A DNA stretch of 64,000 nt. Source: Plumapathes pennacea. Lineage: Eukaryota > Cnidaria > Anthozoa > Antipatharia > Myriopathidae. Location: NCBI GenBank assembly GCA_964036295.1, contig OZ038463.1, positions 12,329,274 through 12,393,273 of the forward strand, written 5' to 3'. This document shows, in pieces, positions 32,692 to 46,679 of the stretch. How positions within the stretch are numbered: position 1 is the stretch's first letter; the number at the start of each line of letters is the position of its first letter. The translations under genes were made by a program, and so were the position numbers. Below the pieces are notes generated by a model. That model did no database searches and had not been told where the DNA came from. It saw only the letters and a program-made list of their open reading frames with translations.

Positions 32692-33280
32692 AGTGACGCC
32701 ATCATTTTATCAAAAAGACATGATGACTACTAATTTACACTGACTAACAGAGAGTATTAACCATGCATGTGTTGACATGGGAAAACAAAAATGGCGAGAC
32801 TATAGATCGATCACATCAACATAGACGACCACATAAACTAACGTCTAATGGCAGCGGCCTCTGCAGTTCGAGATTTCGACAGAGACAGTTGCCTCTCATT
32901 TGATCGATACGAGTTATTGTCAACTGAATAATGTTTGCACAGAGAGATGATGGAGTGGCCAGCTGGCAGCTTCTCAGGCTCATGCCAGAGCGCGGGCCAG
33001 GAAAAAAGAAAAATCTCCGACGGCAGCCGATGTTTGGGCCGTACCAACAATCAGAGATAAACGCCACATCCTCTTACAAAAATTTGGGGGAGGTAAGGAC
33101 GTTTTGGGCCGTAAAACTAGTTGACAAAAAATGAAAGCAACTGTTACCGGCTAGACATCCGTCCGCACCTGGCCAACTGATGAGAGTCGTGATGAGTGCA
33201 GGTAGCATAAATCAGTCAGAGTGGAACCAACCAACATTTTCAAACTATCCTCTTTGAAGAATTAACCATTTTATTATTAT
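32692..33280. other. Spacer downstream of orphan gene 1
   Basis: The first 25 bases after the stop still resemble the paralogue's 3' flank (GACGCCATCATTTT against GACGCCACTCATTT). Beyond that I see no gene. Confidence 0.35.
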
Positions 33281-33557
33281 ATAGACGAGTGTTTTACTGG
33301 AAAATAGACCGTGCGTAAAATCCATACGAAACTACATCCGGGACCCGAGTGGCGTATTTCCCATATCCTCACTAGCGAGGATATCGTTGGCATCGTTGTT
33401 TGTGCAATTCCTCGTAAAACACTCGTGTCTAATATAATAAAAAGAAAATTACACGGCGGCTTGAAGATATGGATGTTATTTTCTCGTGGTAAAAACAATA
33501 TTTTACCACTCGAAAATAAAAATTCATATCTTCGCGCCGCCGTGTAATATCCTCTAT
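33281..33557. repeat. Double-hairpin repeat, copy 2
   Basis: Same two-module structure as 23,765-24,083, shortened in the second module: the spacer between GGTAAAAACAATATTTTAC and the opposite arm is missing. Confidence 0.75.
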
Positions 33558-33583
33558 ATCTTTTACGGCCGTTGACGTTTACA

Positions 33584-33824
33584 GGGCCCGGTTTTTCAAA
33601 GCACGATTAGGCTAATCCTGGATTAGGTCTAAACTTTCTTTTCTTTTTTTAGCCTGAAAACGTGAAAGTTTCGTCCACAACGACTTTCTTGATAAAGTTT
33701 TAAGCAGGAAAAAGCTTCCTAATCCATCTTCGAACAAAACCCAGCAGTTTATTGGCAGAGAGGTCGAGAGAATGAATTTCGTTAATCTTGGATTAGCTTA
33801 ATCGACCTTCGAAAAACCGGGCCC
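33584..33824. mobile_element. MITE with GGGCCCGGTTTTTC ends
   Basis: About 241 bp. The left end is GGGCCCGGTTTTTCAAAG and the right end is CTTCGAAAAACCGGGCCC; inner TTA-GATTAG arms are also inverted. No coding capacity. Target duplication not clear. Confidence 0.7.
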
Positions 33825-34182
33825 TGGTCTCTAAGCATTCTCCACTGCTTTTGTTTATCGGTCTCGTAGTTAACTCTTTACTGGAATCATCCACGGTTCA
33901 TGGGGAGATTTCTTGGGCTCGATAGTCTTCCGTGGGATGTGTGCCGGTACTAAAATATGGCAATGACCACTTCAAGCTGTTACTATTTGTTGCCCGGCAA
34001 TGCTGGGTGTAGACTGAGCTTTTTGAAAAGAACCGTTAGTAAAAAATAAATATCCAACTGGGTTGGTAAATGAGCACACAGGCGCAAGTCTAATTTAACA
34101 TGTGCATGCGCATGTACAAGTCAGCACATTTCAATCTCGTGCCCAGATCCTTTCTAACTGCCACCGGTGCCGTGCTAGACCC
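33825..34182. other. Spacer
   Basis: No gene or clear repeat seen. Confidence 0.35.
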
Positions 34183-34728
34183 GACAGAGCTGACAAACGC
34201 ATTGCGCATGTTGGTGACGTCATCAGTCCGTCCGCTATTTTAATTCACCAACCTTCGAACCTTTACATTTTTGCATTAAAGCCTGAGAGCTTGGCTCACC
34301 TGGTGAGTTGCTCGGAGAGCAGGAGATCTGTACAGTGGGTGGGTTTTATCAACATTATCTGAAGAGGCTTTGCAGCTACGGCACTAGCGAGTCCCAGGTC
34401 GGTAGAATGGCAAGGACGCTTCAATGCAGTGAAATACGGAATTAAATCTTCCTGGGATTGGCTTCTGGTGTAATGTTTTTTAAGTTCCTCTCTGGGACAA
34501 GAACAAAGAGTATCCCTCCGTCGTAATTCGTCCCAGTGGTGACGGCAAACTACTGGATCATTTTCTCGGAGCCCAGAACCTTTGGCCAGTCCTTCTGACA
34601 AGGAGTAGAACTTTCCTTTTCATTGCTCTGCTTGACCAGTCTTGTCCTTTTATACCATCTACGACTTTCACGGTACGCAGCAGTACCACGGCCGCTATGG
34701 CGATGAAAACACTCCGACAAGGACGAAT

Positions 34729-34797
34729 AGACCGAATCAAGGTTATCGACGCCATATTGCTGGGGGTGCAAAAGGATTGGGGCGAGCGCGCGGCCAA
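34729..34797 (+). repeat. Left 69-bp terminal inverted repeat of inner transposon
   Basis: Starts AGACCGAATCAAGGTTATCG and ends GCGCGCGGCCAA. It matches the complement of 37327-37395 with one mismatch, and the transposase ATG follows three bases later. Confidence 0.95.
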
Positions 34798-34800
34798 TAC

Positions 34801-36194
34801 ATGGCGGATAGATTAATATGCCAAAAACACGCTCGCTGTTGCGTTGGATTTTGCGACAATGATAGGCGTTATCCCGATCTACTAACAGTACGATCTCACG
34901 TGAAAGAACTCAAGTTCCATAAGTGGCCAAAAGAAGCAGACCTGGCCGCATTGTGGCTGAAGCAAGTCTCAAAAGGTCGAAGTGATAACTTTAATCCACA
35001 GCCGGGAGCGCAAGGAACATTTGTCTGCTCGAATCATTTCCCCGAAGGCAAGAGAACACCAAATAACTCTAGAACGGATTGCCCAACATTGTTTTTAACA
35101 TTAAGCGAATTTCTGACGAAACAATCACCAAAAAAACCCAAAATAAGGGAGCGATTGACAAGCGAAGAACCCGAAGTCAGCACGAGTGCGCTACCGATGA
35201 AAGTGACGACGATAATTTCGATTTGCGAGTGGCGATGCGCTTTGAGCAAATAACAAGAGAATCAGATGTAAAGACATTCACTGGCTTACCATCAACAAAA
35301 GTATTCAAGTGCTTATTCGAACATTTGTTTATAAAGGCGCAAAATATGCAGTACTGGCGCGGACCAAAACAAACCGCGAAAGAGGAACCTAAATATGACG
35401 GTATTCCTCCTGCTCTAGATCTACCAAGAAATCGCCCTGGCCCAGGTAGAAAACTCGACCTACAGCAAGAATTCCTGTTAACATTGATGAAACTAAAACT
35501 AGGCCTTATAAATGAAGATCTTGCATTTAGATTTATGGTGTCATCAGGTACTGTCAGCAGTGTGTTTATAACCTGGGTCAAGCTAATGTCAAAAGAGCTC
35601 TCTGTACTTATTATCTGGCCGAGCAAACAGCAAGTAAAAACCACTCTGCCATCATGTTTCAAGAAACTGTATCCAAAGGTCAGATGTATTATAGATTGCT
35701 TTGAGTGCTTCACGGAGACTCCGAGTGGTTTAAACCTTGCTGCTGCTCTGTGGAGTGAATATAAGCATCACTATACATGCAAGGTATTGGTAGCCATAAC
35801 CCCCACAGGTGCTATTTCTTATGTATCCCCAAGCTATGGAGGAAGGGCGTCAGATACCTACATTGTTAGAAGTTGTGGTTTCCTGAACATTATTGAGCCT
35901 TATGATGAAGTAATGGCTGATCGAGGATTCAAAATCAGAGAGGACCTCATGATGTCCATGGCTACATTATGTATTCCTCCAAGTTGCGCCGCCTCAATGC
36001 AGATGTTGCCATCTGATGTCAGAAAAACATCAAATATTGCCAATGTGAGAATTTATGTTGAGCAGGCTATTGGTAGGATCAAACTGTTCCGCATTTTGAA
36101 ACATGAGTTGCCAATCAGTCTACTACCTCTTGTAGATGACATTGTGAAAGTATGCTGTGCTCTTTGCAATCTACTTCCCTCTTTGTGTGAGTAA
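34801..36194 (+). pseudogene. THAP-domain DDE transposase, split by one frame change
   Basis: Would cut and reinsert the element. Frame A starts at ATG 34801 (MADRLICQKHARCC), with a THAP-type C2CH finger: CCVGFC, then FHKWPK and LWLKQVSKG, FVCSNHF, and CPTLFL. It stays open to 35253. Frame B is open from about 35079 to the stop at 36194 and contains the HTH_Tnp_4-like stretch LGLINEDLAFRFMVSSGTVS and a DDE_Tnp_4-like catalytic core: Asp of RCIIDCFECF (codon at 35694), Asp of VMADRGFKI (35919) and Glu of IYVEQAIGRIK (36060). All three catalytic residues are present. The two frames overlap by 175 bases and differ by -1. Frame B has no suitable early ATG, so the full protein needs a shift. A run of seven A at 35130-35136 lies in the overlap. 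It could be a disabled gene, a programmed frameshift or a sequence error. Confidence 0.85.
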
Positions 36195-36809
36195 CAACCT
36201 TACTATATACTAGAAAAGCTTTCATGGACTATGAAATAATTTCAAAACTAGTAAACACTACTAGACACAAAGTACATGTATAACTAGTTATATTAAATAT
36301 TCTTTCACAGTCCAATGATAACTACTCTTGAATATGCACTGATGTTAGCAAATAAGTTCTAGCTTAGCAGACCCAAAAGATGAACAATGAAACAAATTGT
36401 GACAAATAACAATATATTTTATTAATATTTATAAGCATATTTATCACAAATGTCTTCCTCAGTGCCAAAAAATTTAATTGAACACAGTGAAGAGAAAGTG
36501 ATTGTACAAGCCAATTATAACAAAACGTTTTAAAATATTTAATAATTGCAAACTTAAATGGAAAACATGTATATAAAAATAGAAAACATTTGTTTTCTAT
36601 GTGCATGGAGTTCCAAAATTATTATGTTGTGGCTAATATTTATATACATGTTGTAGTCAATATTATTTAATCTGATATTGAAACTTTTGTTTCAGTTAAT
36701 AAAATATGGATATTTACATTATTACCAGAAAAGAGATGCCAACAATATGTACAATAAAGATTATAAAATAAAAATTTATACTTAGTAGTCTATTAATTGT
36801 GCTATTTTA

Positions 36810-37169
36810 TTAGCAACATAGTGCACATACCAAGTCAGCTGAGCTGGTAATGTCCTCATGATTACTGCACCATGCATGGACAGCTTTCTTGCAAATGGTG
36901 CATATATGTTCCTGACCCACAGGGATATCTTGCCTTAAACATACATTGCATAAATCATGTTGGTACTCTTCTTGAAGTTTCTTATTGATTTCCTCTTGCG
37001 AGAATTTCTTTGGTGCTTTTAGTTCATAAGCACCAAAAGCTCTAGCAACGAGCTCGGCTTTCTTGCCGCTTTGTTTCAGTCCCCGAAGTGCTAAGAAGTC
37101 CTTCAGCGAGGTGACGGTCCAGTTTACAAAGTCTTCGTATTCGAGCGTTTCTTCTGCCTGTCTCGGCAT
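36810..37169 (-). CDS. SAP domain plus C4HC3 zinc-finger protein of the inner transposon
   Basis: A 119-residue ORF on the minus strand, inside the element and converging on the transposase. Residues about 16-49 (VNWTVTSLKDFLALRGLKQS, then KKAELVARAF) form a SAP-like DNA-binding helix-extension-helix. Residues 74-118 carry eight spaced metal ligands, C74, C77, C90, C93, H98, C101, C115 and C118, the PHD-like C4HC3 order, including the HAWC motif. An acidic/Gln linker lies between them. Second proteins of related elements are said to join SAP to a YqaJ nuclease; no nuclease is present in this ORF and there is no room for one before the TIR. The role is unknown; it may help bind target or transposon DNA. 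The reading frame is intact with its own ATG. Confidence 0.75.
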   Translation of the reverse strand: MPRQAEETLEYEDFVNWTVTSLKDFLALRGLKQSGKKAELVARAFGAYELKAPKKFSQEEINKKLQEEYQHDLCNVCLRQDIPVGQEHICTICKKAVHAWCSNHEDITSSADLVCALCC

Positions 37170-37326
37170 CGACTACGATATAAATAACCACAAAATGTAG
37201 TAAAGATGATCTTCTTGGTAAGCTGTTTAAATCTCAAGGCTGTACTATGTAAAAAACTGGCAAAATATTCGAAGAGAAGAGAGTAAGTATTACTGTTTAC
37301 AAGCGTTCGCTATTTGTTTGAGTGGG

Positions 37327-37395
37327 TTGGCCGCGCGCTCGCCCCAATCCTTTTGCACCCCCGGCAATATGGCGTCGATAACCTTGATTCGGTCT
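37327..37395 (-). repeat. Right 69-bp terminal inverted repeat of inner transposon
   Basis: Complement of 34729-34797 with one mismatch. The adjoining AT at 37396-37397 is the target duplication. Confidence 0.95.
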
Positions 37396-37669
37396 ATTCA
37401 TTTGCAACTTCCACCACGGGTGCAAAGAGGAAAGTGGTAGGTGCAAAAGCTCAGGAAGAGAAAAACTATTGAATTGCAAACTCTAAAAATTTGTAGCTTA
37501 ACTTTTGCTTCTGCGTCTTAACTTTTTTAAAAAACCCCGCCAGAAGTTGTGTTTCATACATAATTAAAAAATACAAAGGGATTCACTGGAGCGGACACCC
37601 GCGCCAGTTTCCGCGGGAAACAGTTTGGCTGCGCGGCCGCGCATGCACAGTGCGTTTGTCAGCTCTGTC

Positions 37670-38802
37670 GGTAAAGTCATGGTTTTGTCGTCGTCGACTG
37701 CAAAACAACACACTACAGTCTATAACTAGTAGTAATCAGAGATTAGCCAGGTGCGTTCGACTTCTCTTTGCTTGGAGTTGTTTTTGTTCTAAGATGCTTT
37801 TCCCTATAACGATATTGAAAAGTTCGTGGGTTTTGTCTGAAACCGGAAGTGAGCAGCACGAAGACCGTGCGGTCCGGGTTCGAAAAACTTTTTCTTTATT
37901 TATTTTCTTTTCTTTGAATTGCTTTAGTATGAAATATCACAAATTTTATATCAAAACCTTCGCTATACTTCCAGGAGCATTTCCTGAAAGTTACATGTAT
38001 TTCATATTAGAGATTTCGCTAGACTACATCAGCCGTACAGAGTACCGGTAGGAAAAAAAATTTTTCAGTACGGCACCTGGAACCGGTTACAATATATGTG
38101 AAGCAAAATGATCGTTTCTTCTGCTGCAGCGGAACTGAACACGAGATAATCTTTCTCATCGAGTTTTTGACCGTTTCGGCGCATTTCGCCTCTAGAATGA
38201 GTAAAATATCCAGTGTGAGCTTCCTTTGGATAGGAGAGCTTTCAGAAGAAAAGGTCGTACTTCATGTTTTTCTGGTACGCAATACCGGTAGCCTCAATTT
38301 CTTCCGGTACAGTATAATTTTTATCAGTAAAATACCGGCATAATTGCCGGTCTAGCGGAATCTCTGCACATGATTCTGAGATTAGGCCAAAAATGGCTAA
38401 TTTTGACCAGAATTTGGAAGGCTATAGCCTATGCTTTTTGCCGAAAACGGCCGATTTTAAGCAAAAATTTAAAATTCTTCAAACTTTCAAGAAATCTTCC
38501 TGTGACTTTATTGAGACTTTTTGCAACTCATTCAAATTTTTCTTCAGCCTGCGCATAATATTACTCTTTTGGTTGAAAAAGGTAAGGTGTTAGGCAAGGA
38601 TTTGCTCGCGACGGGCTGTATAAAACATCACAAGTTATATATCAAAACCTTAGCTACTAATTCCCAGAAACATTTCTTCAAAGATTCATTTGATTCTGAG
38701 ATTAGGCCAAAAAGTGCTCCATCTTGTAGAGTAAGCAACAGATTATCCACTGAAAGTGAACCTCATATCAGCATAAGGAAAAAGTGGGGAGTTCTCCCTG
38801 GG
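37670..38802. other. Spacer with internal similarity
   Basis: No gene recognised. Diverged repeats of ATCAAAACCTT-type sequence occur near 37,950 and 38,640, and GATTCTGAGATTAGGCCAAAA occurs near 38,371 and 38,692, so a degraded mobile sequence is likely. Confidence 0.35.
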
Positions 38803-39610
38803 GGGGAGGGGGGTGGGTACTCAATAGGAATTTGGGTAGGGTGGTTCCGCCGACTCTATAAAACCCTGACCCTATTCAAGACACAAAAATGGAAATTTTG
38901 CTACCCTGTCTAAGACAAAGTGCTCTAATTTGATACCCTGTTCAAGACTGGACCAAAAATATCACCCTATTCAAGACAACGTAAACAATCTATTAATGTA
39001 ATAATTTTCCTTTATTGAGGCAAAAAAAAAAAAAAAAAGCTGTCTGCAGCATCAAGCACAAAACTCCTTGCAACAAATTCGCGGCCTAGGTAAATGCTAT
39101 CATATAAACAAACCTTTTGCCAGTGGTAAAGGAATACGAGTTCACAAAAATGTTCCTAAACATTTAGAAAAATGTTCAATTGACCACTGACTGAACCAGC
39201 CGTTGGTCCAGAGCATGTAATATGACATGACACAACGGAAGTTGATTGATTTTCCGGTAATTGATCAGGCCGCACTATTGTTTTTTTCACATTCTATCTT
39301 TGGCCAAGTCAACAAAAGTCCGTTCACTGGAAATTGTTTGCGGTTAGTCTTTTTTTAATTATACTCCAGTCAGCTTGCGTTGCACGCGTTACCACTGGAG
39401 CATACGAAGAAATCGCGCGAACAAATGGCGAGTGCAAAAAAATGTGGTTGAGGGGGGAGGGGAAGAGGAGAGGATCTTGAAAAAATAACCCTGTTTAAGA
39501 CACGAAAATGTAAAATTTGATACCCTCTTTAAGACAGAAGACCCTGAAAATGATACCCTATCGGGTGGAACATCCCTATATAGGAAATATATGGGAGTAT
39601 CCCCCCGGGG
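38803..39610. mobile_element. Degraded repeat with inverted CCCTATTCAAGACA-type ends
   Basis: The left part (ACCCTATTCAAGACA near 38,871 with G-rich GGGGGGGAGGGGGG) and the right part (ACCCTGTTTAAGACAC near 39,489 with CCCCCGGGGG) are built from related units, together with variants of CTCAATAGGAATT and CCTATATAGGAAAT. Similar sequence recurs near 43,395-43,490. Boundaries are approximate. Confidence 0.45.
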
Positions 39611-40317
39611 GCGATACCCCCCCTTGCCACCCCTACCCACTGAACGATGGGTGGCTATATGATTTGATTCTTTGTCCAAGGATAAAGCGTTTATGATGTA
39701 AAGAATGTTTAAAAAATCAAAACGAAGCAAAAATATTCGGGTACACTCTCATACGCAAAAAAAGTAGTAACTACCATACAAAAATACTCCAAGATGGGGA
39801 CAACAGCGATTTTCAAAGTTGGAGAAACAAAGCACTGGGACGGGTATGAATCAGTTCTTGTTCAAATCGGGGAAGTGTTTTTCTTTGTACGGGATGCCAT
39901 CGGGAAATTTTTACTACACTGAAAACTGAAATCACATGGCTAATATGCACTAGATAGCCAATATTTTGGGTGAATTTTTTGCAAAGCATTATTGTCATAG
40001 GAAAAACATAGTTCCGCGTTTGGTCAGGAGAATGGGACCGAGTTTATAAGTCCCTGGCTGTTCCTTTATGTGCTTATAACTTTGTTTGACAGATTAATAA
40101 AACTTTAATTATAGTTTAAGATTACAAGTATTGTAGTAAACTATCCTCAAACTCTCAGAGGGGATTATAGACAGTAGCCCTATTTCAGCTTCTGTAAACA
40201 TATCATAAATAACAATCAATCAATCAACCTTTATTTATACACGATAAAAATTTAAAGCTACAGCTCTAAGCTTTTTCTGGATTAAAATGCATTAAAATAA
40301 GTAACGTTAGAATCTCC

Positions 40318-40369
<52 letters not shown>

Positions 40370-40438
40370 GTAATAATAATAATAATGATAATAATGATAT
40401 TGATAATAATAATTTCCTTTAGATACTAATAATCAAAC
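39611..40438. repeat. Spacer with AAT microsatellite
   Basis: An (AAT)n tract with interruptions occupies about 40,318-40,413. The remainder shows no gene. Confidence 0.6.
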
Positions 40439-40696
40439 CTAATTTGCTGATAAAATAGAAAGAACAATAAACAACAGTAATATAACATGTAAATTAAGAG
40501 GGCTTCCGCTGTAATTGTAACTGTCATGATAAAATGAAGCAATTCTTGTACCAACACAATTTATTTGTAGTTGAGAATTTTTTGTCACTTCCTTGAAGAT
40601 CTTGGTGTCAGCATCATTCACTGTAACACCAAAAGATAACTCACAAAACTCTCCTAGAAACACGAGGATGAACATTCCTATCAAACTCTTATGCAT
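40439..40696 (-). CDS. Possible small secreted, GPI-anchored protein
   Basis: An 85-residue ORF with an ATG start. Residues 1-22 (MHKSLIGMFILVFLGEFCEL) look like a signal peptide. Residues about 24-60 are polar, with one Cys after the signal and an N-glycosylation site in NYSGS. The last 20 residues form a hydrophobic segment ending at the stop, preceded by small residues SGS, the layout of a GPI-anchor signal. No homologue recognised. The ORF is short and unspliced, lies in repeat-rich DNA beside a double-hairpin copy, and could be chance. The two well-placed hydrophobic ends are the reason for calling it. Confidence 0.35.
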   Translation of the reverse strand: MHKSLIGMFILVFLGEFCELSFGVTVNDADTKIFKEVTKNSQLQINCVGTRIASFYHDSYNYSGSPLNLHVILLLFIVLSILSAN

Positions 40697-40858
40697 CTAT
40701 CAATTCCAGCTGTTACCATCCCCCCCTCCTCCAGGGATCTGTCAAGCCCTGTGTCCCGGGAGGTGGGGCACTTGGACAGGAACGTGTTGCCCCTTCAGCA
40801 TTAGCTATTATCCAACTCTCTTAGTAACATGTATATATTGTATAGTTACACGCAAAAT

Positions 40859-41198
40859 ATATAGAGGATATTACACGGCAGCGTGAAGATATGAATTTTA
40901 TTTTCGAGTGGTAAAAACAATATTTTACGAATGAGCACTTCGCGAGTGAGTAAAATATTGTTTTAACCACGAGAAAATAAAAGTCATATCTTCAAGCCGA
41001 CATGTAATTTTCTTTTTATTATATTAGACACGAGTGTTTTACAAGAAATTGCACAAACAAACGTGCAAAAGTGGGAAATGATGCCAACGATATCCTCACC
41101 ACTGAGGATATGGAAAATACGCCACTCGAGTCCCAGATGTAGTTTCGTATGGATTTTATGCACAGTCTATTTTCCAGTAAAACACTCGTGTCTATATA
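40859..41198. repeat. Double-hairpin repeat, copy 3 (reversed)
   Basis: The ATAGAGGATATTACACGG module comes first and the GACACGAGTGTTTTAC module second, ending AACACTCGTGTCTATAT. The order is inverted relative to the other copies. Confidence 0.75.
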
Positions 41199-42058
41199 AT
41201 AAACAACTGTATTGCATGTTGCTAACAAAAAAAAAAAAAAAAAAAAAAAAATGGTATTTGCATGTTAAACACTTTGCTTATCATTTGTTTTTTTGGCTTG
41301 CCAAAATAAGCATGACTTGTACAACTAAACAAGCATACTACATGCAAAGTGTCTAATGAGATGGACCAGGTACTGGTATATATATATTTTTCTACAAAGT
41401 ATTTTTTTATTACTATTATTCCAGAAAGCAGTTGTGTAGCATACAGAGGCTGTTCTACACTGTACAAACTGTTATGAGGCATAAGCAATCAAATCAGATT
41501 AGAAATTAATTTGTTACTTGTAACACAAATTTATCATGTGATACAATAACTGTTGTCAGAAACATGAAAATGTATCCAGGAAAGACATCTTCATCTACCA
41601 TTTCATCGAATTTGGCAGCTCAAAATTACATGTACTGGTATTATAAACTGATTTGCATGGAAAATTGCCTGGTCACATCTTTTCAGAGAAGTGATGTATT
41701 ACAGGTCATGTGACAGGCCAACACAATACAACAATAAAATTTATTTATTTACACCATTTAATGGTGTAAAACAGAATCACAGCATTTGTAGAGTACTTTT
41801 AAATACAGTATTTACATTTGTGTGGGAAAAGTTGGTGATCAGCCAGCCTTGCCAAATTTGATCTACAGTATGTATAAAATGCTGCAAGTCTTACTTGCGC
41901 ATTTTCCACTTTTTTTTTTCTTGCTCTTTTCATTTTTGGCACTAAAAAACATCTGAAATGAACAATTTTAGTCTTGAGACCTCCGCCTGTAAAAGGCATG
42001 TTCGTATTCCCAACAATCAAAAATGTATTGTAAGAATATATCAGTGCTTTCATCACTG
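41199..42058. other. Spacer downstream of the zinc-finger gene
   Basis: Contains a 25-base A run at about 41,227-41,251 and probably the zinc-finger 3' UTR. No other gene seen. Confidence 0.35.
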
Positions 42059-43111
42059 CTACATCTCAGCATGATTTTGAACATGCTGTGTCATGTCTTC
42101 CTTTAAAGCAAAATATTCACAACACACATGACACTCGTAAGCAAACTTATAAAACCTGTACGGGTTTTCATCTCTGTGCATAAAAAAGTGCTGTGTAAAT
42201 TTCTCTTTGACAACAAAGGTTTCACAACATACTTCACATGTGTAGCACTTTTCTTCAATGTGCTGAAGTTGATGCTCTGTCAGATGAATCTCCTGAGTGA
42301 AGCCTTTACCACACTTGTCACAAGTGTACAGTTCTTCTCCAGCCAGCATGCATTGTCGCTGTGTCAAATTCTTGTTTGTGAACTGGTTGTCCTGACAATC
42401 TTTATCAGAGTGTACAAATCGGTGACTGGTCAGGTTACTCTTCCATGCAAAAGTTTTGCCACATTTGTCACACTTGTGGGGTTTTGCTCCTGTGTGTACA
42501 AGTTTATGTGTGGTCAGGCTAACCTTCCATGCAAAAGTTTTACCACATTTGTCACACTTGTTGGGTTCTTCTCCTGTGTGTACAAGTTGGTGCCTGGTCA
42601 GGTTACTCTTCTGTGCAAAAGTTTTACCACATTTGTCACACTTGTGGGGTTTTTCTCCTGTGTGTACAAGTTGATGCATGGTCAGGCTGCCCTTCACTGT
42701 AAAGGTTTTATCACATTTGTCACACTTGTAATTTTTTTCTCCTGTGTGTACAAGTTGGTGCATGGTCAGGCTACTCTTCTGTGCAAAAGTTTTACCACAT
42801 TTGTCACACTTGTGGGGTTTTTTTCCTGTGTGTACAAGTTGGTGCTTGTTCAGGTCACCCTTCCTTGCAAATGTTTTACCACATTTGTCACACTTGTGGG
42901 GTTTTTGTTCTGAGTGTAAGAGTTGATGTGTGGTCAGGTGACTCTTCTGTGCAAAAGTTTTGCCACATTTGTCACACTTATGGGGTTTTTCTCCTGTGTG
43001 TACAAGTTGGTGCTTGTTCAGGTCACCCTTCCTTGCAAATGTTTTACCACATTTGTCACACTTGTGGGGCTTTCCTCTGCACAACAGTTGATGAGGTTTG
43101 AAAGAGCTCAT
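42059..43111 (-). CDS. C2H2 zinc-finger protein (11 intact fingers)
   Basis: Likely a sequence-specific DNA-binding nuclear protein. From the ATG at 43111 (MSSFKPHQLL) the ORF encodes 350 residues; the frame is open 69 bases further upstream without an ATG, so an upstream exon may exist. Eight consecutive fingers of the form KPHKCDKCGKTFAxKxxLxx are joined by TGEKP-type linkers. A degenerate finger follows (the CQDNQFTNKN region lacks its ligands), then three diverged fingers ending MTQHVQNHAEM. Helix positions vary between fingers (ARKGDLNKH, AQKSHLTTH, AQKSNLTRH, AWKVSLTTH). Fingers 1 and 3 are identical in the helix, pointing to recent 84-base unit exchange. No KRAB, SCAN or other N-terminal domain is seen in this exon. 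Confidence 0.85.
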   Translation of the reverse strand: MSSFKPHQLLCRGKPHKCDKCGKTFARKGDLNKHQLVHTGEKPHKCDKCGKTFAQKSHLTTHQLLHSEQKPHKCDKCGKTFARKGDLNKHQLVHTGKKPHKCDKCGKTFAQKSSLTMHQLVHTGEKNYKCDKCDKTFTVKGSLTMHQLVHTGEKPHKCDKCGKTFAQKSNLTRHQLVHTGEEPNKCDKCGKTFAWKVSLTTHKLVHTGAKPHKCDKCGKTFAWKSNLTSHRFVHSDKDCQDNQFTNKNLTQRQCMLAGEELYTCDKCGKGFTQEIHLTEHQLQHIEEKCYTCEVCCETFVVKEKFTQHFFMHRDENPYRFYKFAYECHVCCEYFALKEDMTQHVQNHAEM

Positions 43112-43930
43112 AGAAAATGGACGTTTCTTACAACATCTGTCAAAGGAGTACAGGTTCTCTTTTTGTGATGATGTTTTCAAACTTCAACCAGCCAGGTTCA
43201 ACCTGTAAAACAATTCAACCTGTCATTAGCTTCTGTTTAACCTTTTATATAGCCCAGGAAAAAAAATGGAGGGGTGGGGCCTGTGACCAAGGGAAAATGG
43301 TGCCCAGCCATAACAATAGGTAATTTTTGGTCTAGTTTTGAAGAGAGTCACAAATTTGAGCACTTTGCTATACAGTGTAGGAAAATACAAATGTTTGTGT
43401 CTTGAATAGGGTAGGGTTTTATAGAGTCAGTGGAACATCCCTATACTCAAATTCCTATTGGGTACCCCCCTCCACTCAAATACAGATTCCCCAATTTTTT
43501 TAAGGGAAAAAACGTGATTGATTTAGTGAGAATCGGTAGTTTAATCAGCTGTTAACTGAGCAAGGTATTAAAAGCCAATTTCTGGTGAGAAGCTGAAACA
43601 GGAAATTATAGTTGATCACTCTTGGGCCCTCTTGGTAGTGAAAGAGTTGCAAAGATAAAAATCTTAAGTGGTTTACTGTATGCATATGGGGCCATGCACG
43701 AATCTGTATCTTTTTGCCCAAATAGTTTAATCTGCTGGTTCAGAGTCGTCGAGCAGTTTGTGGTGGTGAACCAAAATCTGTAACGAAGCTTTGAACCAGG
43801 AGATCATGAACAAGTGAGTAAGAAGTTCTTTCATGCAGTGGCGTTGTACACTGAAAAATCGCGCGCCAGAAACAACGCGCCGATTATTAAGAGCTTCATC
43901 TCGCACCCACAACAAAAAAGGTTTGAGCAA
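43112..43930. other. Upstream of zinc-finger gene
   Basis: May hold its 5' exon(s). A repeat related to 38,803-39,610 occurs near 43,395-43,490. No gene can be supported. Confidence 0.3.
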
Positions 43931-44580
43931 TTTAACACTGAATCAATCTAAGATCAAATTATAAGTAAATTCAACACTGAATTAATCTAAGATCAAATGA
44001 AAGTAAATTCAACACTGAATCAATCTAAGATCAAATATAAGTAAATTTAACACTGAGGCCCGGTTCAGACGCCGCTCCTGACATGCGCCGAACCTAATGC
44101 TTGAATTAAGTACGGCAGAAGAGCGGCGTCTGAATCAATTAGGTTTGGCATATTTGAATTAGGTACGGCAGCGGTATTAGGTTCGACTGACGCTGTCGCA
44201 TAATCCGACCTGGGAGCGAAGTTGATTCAGACGCCGCTCTTCACATGTGCCGTACCTATGCATGAATAATTTTGAATAATTTTGAATTAAAAACATGTAT
44301 CCTTAAACATAAGCACTATTGTGTATTTGGTGCGGCAGGAAAAGTTCGCCGTTTGAATCAACAGTCGCTCCTATGTCGAACCAGGGTCGAATCTATTACT
44401 ATTAGGTTCGCACATGTCAGGAGCGGCGTCTGAACCGGGCCTGAATCATTCTAAGATCAAATATAAGTAAATCTAACACTGAATCAATCTAAGATCAAAT
44501 ATAAGTAAATTTAACACTGAATCAATCTAAGATCAAATATAAGTAAATTCAACACCGAATTAATCTAAGATCAAGTAACT
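43931..44580. repeat. 38-bp minisatellite split by a MITE
   Basis: About seven near-tandem units of AACACTGAATCAATCTAAGA followed by TCAAATATAAGTAAATT lie on both sides of a 385-bp insertion at 44,057-44,441. Confidence 0.85.
44057..44441. mobile_element. Harbinger-like MITE inside the minisatellite
   Basis: A 385-bp element with ends GGCCCGGTTCAGACGCCGC and its complement, flanked by TGA on both sides (44054-44056 and 44442-44444). The surrounding satellite unit reads ...CACTGAATC..., so the duplicated TGA is explained by insertion. A 3-bp duplication suggests PIF/Harbinger. Confidence 0.82.
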
Positions 44581-44614
44581 CACCCTTAGTTCAGTTCCGA
44601 AAGCAGCTCGCAGC

Positions 44615-45434
44615 GACAGAGCTGACAAACGCATTGCGCATGTTGGTGACGTCATCAGTCCGTCCGCTACCTTCGAAAGTTTACATTTTTGCATTAAAGC
44701 CTGAGAGCTTGGCTCACCTGGTGAGTTGCTCGGAGAGCAGGAGATCTGTACAGTGGATGGGTTTTATCAACATTATCTGAAGAGGCTTTGCAGCTACGGC
44801 ACTAGCGAGTCCCAGGTCGGTAGAATGGCAAGGACGCTTCAGTGCAGTGAAATACGGAATGAAATCTTCCTGGGATTGGCTTCTGGTGTAATGTTTTTTA
44901 AGTTCCTCTCTGGGACAAGAGCAACGAGTATCCCTCCGTCGTAATTCGTCCCAGTGGTGACGGCAAACTACTGGATCATTTTCTCGGAGCCCAGAACCTT
45001 TGGCCAGTCCTTCTGACAAGGAGTAGAACTTTCCTTTTGATTGCTCTGCTTGACCAGTCCTTTCGCCTTGAGTATATTGTCCTTTTATACCATCTACGAC
45101 TTTCACGGTACGCAGCAGTACCACGGCCGCTATGGCGATGAAAACACTCCGACAAGGACGAATTCATTTGCAATTTTCACCACGGGTGCAAGGAGGAAAG
45201 TGGTAGGTGCAAAAACTCAGGAAGAGAAAAACTAGTGAACTGCAAACTCTAAAAATTTGTAGCTTAACTTTTGCTTCTGCGTCTTAACTTTAAAAAAAAA
45301 AAACCGCCAGAAGTTGTGTTTCGTACATAATTAAAAAATACAAAGGGATTCACTGGAGCGGACACCCGCGCCAGTTTCCGCGGGAAACAGTTTGGCTGCG
45401 CAGCCGCGCATGCACAGTGCGTTTGTCAGTTGTC
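44615..45434. mobile_element. Outer nonautonomous DNA transposon, copy 2 (empty site)
   Basis: An 820-bp element starting GACAGAGCTGACAAACGC with a damaged right end (GTTTGTCAGTTGTC at 45,421-45,434). Nearly identical to the outer parts of copy 1 but without the 2,667-bp insertion. It carries TGACGTCA at 44647-44654 and minus-strand TATAAAAGGAC at 45079-45089, and has a 17-base segment near 45,060-45,077 that copy 1 lacks. Confidence 0.88.
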
Positions 45435-46679
45435 GCTAGACCCGGAAACGGAGGACTGATTCTAATAATTGGTAAATAGCAGCCCCATTGGATTGCATTG
45501 CAGTGTATTGTTTTGATAACTTATAAGTAGCCGATCGGGATCATCCGATAAATTGATCCCTTCCGGAGTCGACCATGTGCCATTCACTATCTTTCGTTCC
45601 CCCACCCCCAGCCGCGCAAACCACGAATTGATTATGTTTTTTGCTGATTTCACAGTATACTGTAGCATCAAAATGCAGGGGAAAGACACAGAAGGACTGG
45701 CCGTGTTTGAGACAGTTAAATAGTCACGCTCCCTTTTCTATATCATTTTATCGTCTGTTTTTGTTAACAAAGGGAAGTTCTCCTTGAACGCCGTGGAACT
45801 ACCTCAGTAAAAAAAAAAAAAAAAAAAAAAAACGTTTGGCATTTATGGACTCCAAAGGGAGGGATTGTTTTGACCATCCACCATTGTTAAATTTGAAAAG
45901 ATGCCTTTGCATTTTGAAACACACAGCGGAATGAAATAATTAAAGTAGAAAATTAAAATCAGCCTCTCGTTTGGAATGAATGTCTGATTGCAGCTACAGC
46001 TATTTTAGTTTTACCGGACTAGAACTTCCAGTTTGAGTATTCTGGCTATAAACCAGGGCCAAAATGATGAGGAAAATAAAGCAACAGTTTTGGGGGCTGC
46101 TTCAACCCTCATGAATGAGAGCCACTTCAGCATACTATATGGAAGCCAGAATGATCCCAGCTGGGGAACTAAAACAAAGAGGATGATGGTTTATGTGATA
46201 TAGGGCCCATTTGAGGCTTTAACAAGGCTGGAACAAACATAAAATGGCCTGCATGAAATAATGCACCAATTGGAAAAAGAATCGGCCATCTGAAACTTAA
46301 AAAAAGAACCACAAACTTACAATGCACAAATTTAATAGCAACAACCAACTTATAAAACAGTTTCATGATACTGCCCTATAAATTACACTATTGGTACCTG
46401 CTGTTGGGCTGTCATGTAGTGTTAGCACACCAAAGCAGTAAACAATCATACAACCTTTAAGGGTACAAACGTGCACTGTACTTTCAAATAATCAAGTTCA
46501 AACATTGTTTCTGAAAATAGGAATATGAGTTACTATCTAATCCTGACAGAGTACTACAAGTTGCTAAGTTGTCCTTTCTGGGAGAGTGATACAATACAAA
46601 ACATGTTGCCTTCAAACAAAGTCATTTCATACTGTACAGCTGCTCCAGAGCTCGATGCTTGATAGTATTTGTTATTTAT
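45435..46679. other. Spacer
   Basis: Contains an A run at about 45,809-45,832. No gene recognised. Confidence 0.35.

What the first reader, a model, noticed from the sequence alone, without database searches (positions are those of the whole stretch)
34183..37669. Nested transposons with the exact pre-insertion site preserved 10 kb away
Seen directly: the 820-bp element at 44,615-45,434 reads GGACGAATTCATTTGC at its middle. At 34,721 the same element reads GGACGAAT, then 2,667 bp with 69-bp inverted ends, then ATTCATTTGC. The AT is single in the empty copy and doubled around the insertion. This fixes the inner element's ends, its orientation and its 2-bp AT duplication with no guesswork, which is rare within one window. 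Both elements look young because their arms are nearly identical.
Basis: seen in the sequence. Interest (0 to 1): 0.75.

Follow-up and report, generated by a model that had tools for sequence, protein, structure and literature searches.

The report
Zinc-finger gene bracketed by twin transposons
In an unnamed animal-like genome, a young transposon sits inside one of two transposon copies that together appear to have carried a zinc-finger gene segment from one chromosome to another, like a bacterial composite transposon.

Summary
A 2,667-bp element (34,729-37,395; 69-bp inverted ends, one mismatch) sits in copy W1 (34,183-37,669) of an ~820-bp element, flanked by doubled AT; copy W2 (44,615-45,434) keeps the empty site GAATTC. 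The inner element is an internally deleted ISL2EU transposon, 0.26-0.41% from three same-structure copies; its transposase is broken, and no YqaJ part of ORF2 was found in the seven copies seen.

The outer family makes 9-bp duplications (15 of 33 loci exact). W1's and W2's own flanks agree at only 5/9 each, but the 9 bp left of W1 equal the 9 bp right of W2 (GCTAGACCC). Of the 6,945 bp between them, 4,917 align collinearly with a zinc-finger cluster on another chromosome, ending 5 bp and 1 bp from the elements; they hold an open C2H2 frame. W1-gene-W2 is best read as one composite unit inserted together (macrotransposition); ectopic recombination through a pre-existing element is the main rival. 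The ISL2EU insertion probably came later.

The parts
34174..34182 (.). Left 9-bp target-site duplication of the composite unit, GCTAGACCC
   Evidence: Identical to 45,435-45,443; the family's duplication length is 9 bp
34183..37669 (+). W1: outer element interrupted by the ISL2EU insertion; both 19-bp terminal inverted repeats perfect
34727..34728 (.). AT target duplication, left copy (target A|AT|T)
   Evidence: empty site in W2 at 45,160-45,165
34729..37395 (+). Inner ISL2EU element, 2,667 bp
34729..34797 (+). Left 69-bp terminal inverted repeat of the inner element
   Evidence: one mismatch to the right end
34729..35253 (+). 5' piece of the broken transposase (THAP domain); 1-bp insertion at about 34,823 and 22-bp deletion at about 35,173, both only in this copy, put THAP and DDE in different frames
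35073..36194 (+). 3' piece of the broken transposase (HTH_Tnp_4 + DDE_Tnp_4)
   Evidence: (DDE_Tnp_4 144.7 bits)
36810..37169 (-). ORF2 remnant: SAP domain and Cys/His-rich tail; no YqaJ match
   Evidence: compared with relatives
37327..37395 (-). Right 69-bp terminal inverted repeat of the inner element
37396..37397 (.). AT target duplication, right copy
37670..44614 (.). Captured segment (6,945 bp); 4,917 bp align collinearly with G000:C1:32,483,562-32,488,574, about 2.0 kb in gaps do not
42059..43183 (-). C2H2 zinc-finger frame, 374 aa from stop to stop, in the captured segment; start codon and other exons not determined
   Evidence: zf-C2H2, 7 stretches; same C-terminal end as the C1 paralog
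44615..45434 (+). W2: outer element without the inner insertion; left terminal repeat perfect, right one degenerate
45160..45165 (.). Empty ISL2EU target GAATTC in W2
45435..45443 (.). Right 9-bp target-site duplication of the composite unit, GCTAGACCC

Best explanation
Two events. (1) Two copies of a nonautonomous, 9-bp-TSD inverted-repeat element lay in direct orientation on either side of a zinc-finger gene segment in a C1-type cluster. A transposase acting in trans joined the left end of the first copy and the right end of the second and moved everything between as one unit (macrotransposition) to a site on C2, duplicating GCTAGACCC. Without the inner insertion the unit is about 8.6 kb. 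(2) An ISL2EU transposon inserted by cut-and-paste into the left copy at A|AT|T, doubling AT. It is a nonautonomous, internally deleted member whose transposase frame is now broken. SHOWN: both elements and their ends; the AT duplication and empty site; the 9/9 duplication on the outside only; homology of the interior to C1 ending 5 bp and 1 bp from the elements; absence of the terminal repeat (up to 4 mismatches) and of any W2 match from the four C1 stretches fetched. INFERRED: the direction C1 to C2; that a transposase rather than homologous recombination did it; that the ISL2EU insertion came second; the identity of the outer family's transposase.
For: Outer 9-bp match 9/9, about 4e-6 for a pre-specified pair of random 9-mers (my arithmetic). 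The family's own-flank pairs are exact in 15 of 33 loci (34 read, L055 had no right end; 20 of the 33 were picked because both ends matched perfectly, and L066, L067, L078 are one segmental duplication) and in 24 of 41 listed pairs within 20 kb. W1's and W2's own flanks agree at 5/9 each, W2-left with W1-right at 3/9. Control: 2,100 comparisons between flanks of different loci reach at most 7/9; in the larger list of 6,656 distant left-right comparisons the other 9/9 matches (eight) lie at C3:7.24-7.60 Mb, a segmental duplication by alignment, and C6:19.10/19.13 Mb, probably one too. The interior has a collinear paralog on C1, alignable from the sixth base after W1 to one base before W2. The C1 stretches carry no match to the 340 bp left of the unit or the 380 bp right of it. 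W1 and W2 are in the same orientation, so the outermost ends form a normal left...right pair. Inner element.
Against: No excision site, donor locus with both elements, or empty C2 site was seen; one search scored only 40 of 5,994 candidates, so a donor could have been missed. The best C1 paralog differs by about 3.5-9% in substitutions, lacks the elements and lacks about 2.0 kb of the interior, so it is not the immediate donor. Own-flank agreement of 5/9 for both W1 and W2 is above the random mean (about 6% of unrelated pairs reach it), so decayed own duplications are not wholly excluded. W2's right terminal repeat is degenerate (CAGTTGTC for CAGCTCTGTC), which must be assumed to postdate the move. 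No autonomous partner was found: none of 11 MULE-domain places lies within 20 kb of a listed terminal-repeat place (lists capped at 100). Recombination through an element already at the C2 site gives the same final structure.
Confidence: 0.65

Rival explanations
1. Ectopic recombination or gap repair: a single element already sat at the C2 site between two GCTAGACCC copies. A break in it was repaired from a zinc-finger locus flanked by two elements (or a recombination-derived circle integrated into it), adding the segment and a second element copy.
For: Predicts the same outer duplication and direct orientation. Gap filling is the favoured source of single-copy Pack-TIRs in animals (PMC8277862, sections read). 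A second locus pair (C2:30.42 Mb and C3:23.19 Mb) shares an element plus at least 2.5 kb of one flank and diverges within 1 bp of the element's other edge, as either model allows.
Against: Needs an element already at the target as well as two around the donor. Ordinary gap filling leaves parts of one element round the filler with breakpoints inside it; here both copies are complete and the interior homology stops at their edges. No element-flanked donor copy was among the matches scored (40 of 5,994 candidates), though repair would have left one in place.
Confidence: 0.25
2. W1 and W2 are independent insertions that happen to bracket a segment duplicated to C2 by some other route.
For: The family is numerous (474 terminal-repeat matches at up to 2 mismatches), zinc-finger paralogs are many, and W1's and W2's own flanks each agree at 5/9, which could be decayed duplications.
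Against: Requires decay of both elements' own duplications, a chance 9/9 match of the outer flanks, and coincidence of the homology ends with both inner element edges.
Confidence: 0.05
3. On the order of events only (not exclusive with the others): the ISL2EU insertion happened in W1 before the composite unit moved, so that an 11.25-kb unit jumped.
For: The structure alone does not order the two events.
Against: The inner copy differs by only 0.26-0.41% from sister copies, whereas interior and C1 paralog differ by about 3.5-9% and W1 and W2 by 3.0%, so the later-insertion order is simpler; but those larger figures are only upper bounds on the age of the move.
Confidence: 0.15

Closest known systems
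ISL2EU group of the PHIS (Harbinger-like) superfamily (PMC4482050, parts 1-2 of 4 read)
   Same: AT duplication within A|AT|T; THAP + HTH + DDE_Tnp_4 transposase; second ORF with SAP and PHD-like parts; 69-bp ends within the reported 6-259 bp
   Different: The seven copies found are 2.5-2.8 kb (autonomous average about 4.8 kb in the paper) and show no YqaJ region; ends begin AG, not the usual GG; one copy (C2:13,298,695-13,301,191) is a palindrome with two right ends
Ac/Ds macrotransposons and composite insertions of maize (PMC9910405, passages seen)
   Same: Two nearby elements' outer ends act as one large transposon with a single outer duplication; host DNA travels inside; they can reinsert
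   Different: Maize elements with 8-bp duplications (hAT is recalled), followed experimentally; here an unassigned 9-bp family, seen only as a structure in one assembly
Pack-TIRs of animals (PMC8277862, abstract, passages and sections 7, 8, 14 read)
   Same: Host DNA between inverted-repeat transposon sequence, with a parental copy elsewhere that lacks the element
   Different: Pack-TIR filler lies between two parts of one element and was searched only up to 5 kb; here two complete elements flank 6.9 kb. That survey reports no Pack-MULE in its animal reference genomes
KolobokP composite-like transposons (PMC9587614, passages seen)
   Same: Internal region between two long direct repeats that each have their own short inverted ends, in animals
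   Different: KolobokP carries its own transposase and nuclease inside and is a lineage; here the cargo is a host zinc-finger segment in a single composite
Bacterial composite transposons (background in PMC6431247 and PMC9587614, passages seen)
   Same: Two element copies bracket unrelated cargo that moves as a unit
   Different: The flanking elements here encode nothing recognised

Membership tests
ISL2EU | 2-bp AT duplication in target A|AT|T | tested here: met
   Left flank AAT in 7 of 7 copies, right flank ATT in 6 of 7 (L038 right end altered); GAATTC empty site in W2
ISL2EU | Transposase with THAP, HTH and DDE domains | tested here: met
   PF05485, PF13613, PF13359 above cut-off in the open 467-aa frame of L039; same domains in two frames in the window copy
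ISL2EU | Second ORF with YqaJ exonuclease domain (most autonomous members) | tested here: inconclusive
   No YqaJ match in the ORF2 pieces scanned (window, L039, L041); none of the 64 YqaJ places lies in one of the seven copies. ORF2 remnants match the SAP and PHD-side parts flanking YqaJ places at C12:6,861,027-6,862,900 and C11:7,887,006-7,888,826: read as a deleted YqaJ ORF, so filed as an internally deleted member
ISL2EU | Ends usually beginning GG | tested here: not met
   Ends begin AG; stated only as 'usually', so not treated as defining
ISL2EU | Placement in the ISL2EU clade of DDE domains | not tested
   No tree was built
Macrotransposon / composite transposon | Two element copies in direct orientation bracketing unrelated DNA | tested here: met
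Macrotransposon / composite transposon | One target duplication of the family's length at the outermost ends, none at the inner ends | tested here: met
   GCTAGACCC outside 9/9; own pairs 5/9 and 5/9, inner pair 3/9
Macrotransposon / composite transposon | Cargo homologous to a different place, ending at the inner element edges | tested here: met
   Ends 5 bp and 1 bp from the edges; 4,917 of 6,945 bp aligned
Macrotransposon / composite transposon | Moves as a unit by transposase | not testable with these tools
   Needs empty or excised sites or an assay
Pack-TIR (gap-filled) | Filler between two parts of a single element, breakpoints inside it | tested here: not met
   Both W1 and W2 are complete, with both ends
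Mutator-like (MULE) superfamily, for the outer element | 9-bp target duplication | tested here: met
   15 of 33 loci exact; that 9 bp suits Mutator-like families is supported by Tm1 (PMC3169594 passages), that it also suits Merlin is recalled
Mutator-like (MULE) superfamily, for the outer element | MULE transposase between matching ends | tested here: inconclusive
   11 PF10551 places in the genome, none within 20 kb of the listed terminal-repeat places; those lists are capped at 100

The most novel reading that the evidence does not exclude
Pairs of protein-less inverted-repeat elements act as composite transposons in this animal-like genome and have more than once carried multi-kilobase host DNA between chromosomes, including a zinc-finger gene segment out of its cluster. 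The C2/C3 pair (C2:30.42 Mb, C3:23.19 Mb) sharing an element and at least 2.5 kb of flank with long open frames would be a second case.
Probability: 0.3. Interest if true: 0.7.

Novelty: new variant of a known kind. Interest (0 to 1): 0.5.

Why it matters
Gene capture by inverted-repeat transposons in animals is mostly explained by gap repair inside single elements (PMC8277862). A case with two complete nonautonomous elements, one shared duplication at the outer ends and an open zinc-finger frame moved between chromosomes would show that short protein-less elements can relocate gene-sized segments in animals, and gives exact junctions to test. Separately, the inner ISL2EU family has inserted at several sites in forms where no YqaJ region is found (four same-structure copies), so YqaJ need not be supplied in cis.

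Tried and rejected
Two independent outer insertions: disfavoured because the outer flanks match 9/9 while own flanks agree at 5/9 each. Autonomous partner of the outer family: the 6.8-kb pair L078 has no ORF over 215 aa and is an insertion-bearing copy in a segmental duplication; L080 is the outer element with about 6 kb inserted, one ORF over 110 aa (114 aa); L079 is not a single element; MULE-domain places did not coincide with listed terminal repeats. A YqaJ tail guessed by eye in L039 ORF2 was not confirmed by Pfam. W2's left flank resembles the right flank of a C8 element at 8/9; about 0.7 such matches are expected by chance in 6,656 comparisons (my arithmetic), so it was dropped. Comparing arm ancestry to separate macrotransposition from recombination was not decisive: the left arm of W1 is closest to W2 (1.5%), the right arms are each closest to other copies. 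Paper searches (listings, most of them capped; one search found no papers) showed no report of this case; 'not seen in print' rests on that alone.
Full report
WHAT WAS CHECKED. The window lies at G000:C2:12,329,274-12,393,273 in an unnamed 290-Mb, 24-contig assembly.

INNER ELEMENT. It has 69-bp inverted ends with one mismatch. Pfam finds THAP in one frame and HTH_Tnp_4 plus DDE_Tnp_4 in another, and SAP in a minus-strand frame. Seven copies were found in the assembly by the DNA search (7 candidates, 7 scored). All seven have AAT on the left and six ATT on the right; the seventh (L038) has an altered right end. This is the A|AT|T target reported for ISL2EU (PMC4482050, parts 1-2 of 4 read). 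Four copies (W, L036-L038) share one internal structure, two (L039, L040) another, and L041 is a palindrome of two identical 1,071-bp arms with right ends on both sides. The transposase frame is open (467 aa or longer, stop to stop) in L036, L039 and L040. It is broken in W (1-bp insertion near 34,823 and 22-bp deletion near 35,173), L037 (4-bp deletion) and L038 (one stop); L041 has none. The window copy is therefore young but not autonomous.

ORF2. In L039 and L041 it holds SAP and a PHD-type finger (above cut-off in L041 only), with no YqaJ match. The nearest relatives in the same genome, at C12:6,859,292-6,862,900 and C11:7,887,006-7,889,734, have transposase, PHD-side, YqaJ and SAP parts in that order on convergent strands. 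So the family's ORF2 is read as a YqaJ-type ORF that has lost its core in the copies found. Copies without it lie at several AT-duplicated sites, so YqaJ is not needed in cis; whether an unseen full copy supplied it in trans is open.

OUTER ELEMENT. Many places share GACAGAGCTGACAAACGCA ends (474 at up to 2 mismatches against 3 for the reversed control). Of 34 loci read, 33 had both ends and 15 of those show an exact 9-bp duplication; 20 of the 33 were picked because both ends matched perfectly, and three of the 15 (L066, L067, L078) are one segmental duplication. Of 41 left-right pairs within 20 kb among the listed places 24 are exact, five of them in the C3 and C6 duplicates (100 left-end rows, 66 of 100 right-end rows used). 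No autonomous copy or transposase was identified; the superfamily stays open, with 9 bp suggesting a Mutator-like or Merlin-like family (the latter recalled).

THE COMPOSITE. W1 has GCTAGACCC on its left and GGTAAAGTC on its right; W2 has GCTCGCAGC on its left and GCTAGACCC on its right. The own pairs agree at 5/9 each, the inner pair at 3/9, the outer pair at 9/9. As controls, 2,100 comparisons between flanks of different loci reach at most 7/9, with 6% at 5/9 or more; and in 6,656 distant left-right comparisons the other 9/9 matches (eight) lie at C3:7.24-7.60 Mb and C6:19.10/19.13 Mb, the first a segmental duplication by alignment, the second probably so. The sequence between W1 and W2 has a collinear paralog at C1:32,483,562-32,488,574, next to others with an 84-bp finger period. 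Of its 6,945 bp, 4,917 align; about 2.0 kb in four gaps do not. Homology starts at the sixth base after W1 and stops one base before W2. The four C1 stretches fetched contain no such terminal repeat at up to 4 mismatches and no match to W2, so the nearest paralog also shows the two inner insertion sites without elements. Searches with 1.18 kb left and 1.17 kb right of the unit found dispersed repeats further out (one search scored 40 of 3,128 candidates). Against the C1 stretches the flanks give only short or repeat-type matches away from the unit's edges (L056, L057). The cargo holds a 374-aa stop-to-stop C2H2 frame ending like its C1 paralog; its start and other exons were not determined.

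AGE. Interior against C1: 21 mismatches in a 585-column block, 62 in 1,209, and 164 in 1,880 over the finger part, about 3.5-9% over the blocks. W1-W2: 24 of 802, 17th closest of 120 family pairs. Inner element against L036, L037, L038: 11/2,666, 7/2,662, 11/2,665. The order composite first, ISL2EU second is the simplest but is inferred.

MECHANISM. Macrotransposition explains in one step the orientation, the single outer duplication, the missing inner duplications and the edges of homology. It is known for maize Ac (PMC9910405, passages). Gap filling as described for animal Pack-TIRs gives filler inside one element (PMC8277862, sections read), which is not what is seen; recombination through a pre-existing element with a two-element donor remains possible.

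VERDICT. The larger structure, a zinc-finger segment bracketed by two complete nonautonomous elements with one shared 9-bp duplication, is the part worth a second look.

Noticed in passing
L041 (G000:C2:13,298,695-13,301,191): An ISL2EU derivative with two right ends and 1,071-bp arms identical at 100%, flanked by AAT...ATT: a palindromic, apparently mobile form.
   Followed up: partly
L065/L081 (C2:30.42 Mb) and L069/L082 (C3:23.19 Mb): Same outer-family element plus at least 2.5 kb of left flank (95.9% identical) on two chromosomes, diverging within 1 bp of the element's right edge; possible second composite or recombination event.
   Followed up: partly
G000:C4:22.7-25.9 Mb; C4:47,035 and C13, C14, C15, C17: Right ends of the outer family recur with an identical 9-bp flank (CGCTGACCG; GTTGATAGC), as if part of longer repeats.
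   Followed up: no
window 33,263-33,843 and 46,028-46,600: Dispersed repeats with many copies lie on both sides of the composite unit.
   Followed up: no
G000 genome-wide: 64 YqaJ-domain matches and 93 matches to the ISL2EU-type transposase (91 of 166 candidates scored): many related elements in this genome.
   Followed up: no
G000:C1:31.2-31.75 and 32.37-32.53 Mb: Large tandem groups matching the zinc-finger part of the captured segment; smaller ones on C4, C6, C7 and elsewhere on C1.
   Followed up: partly
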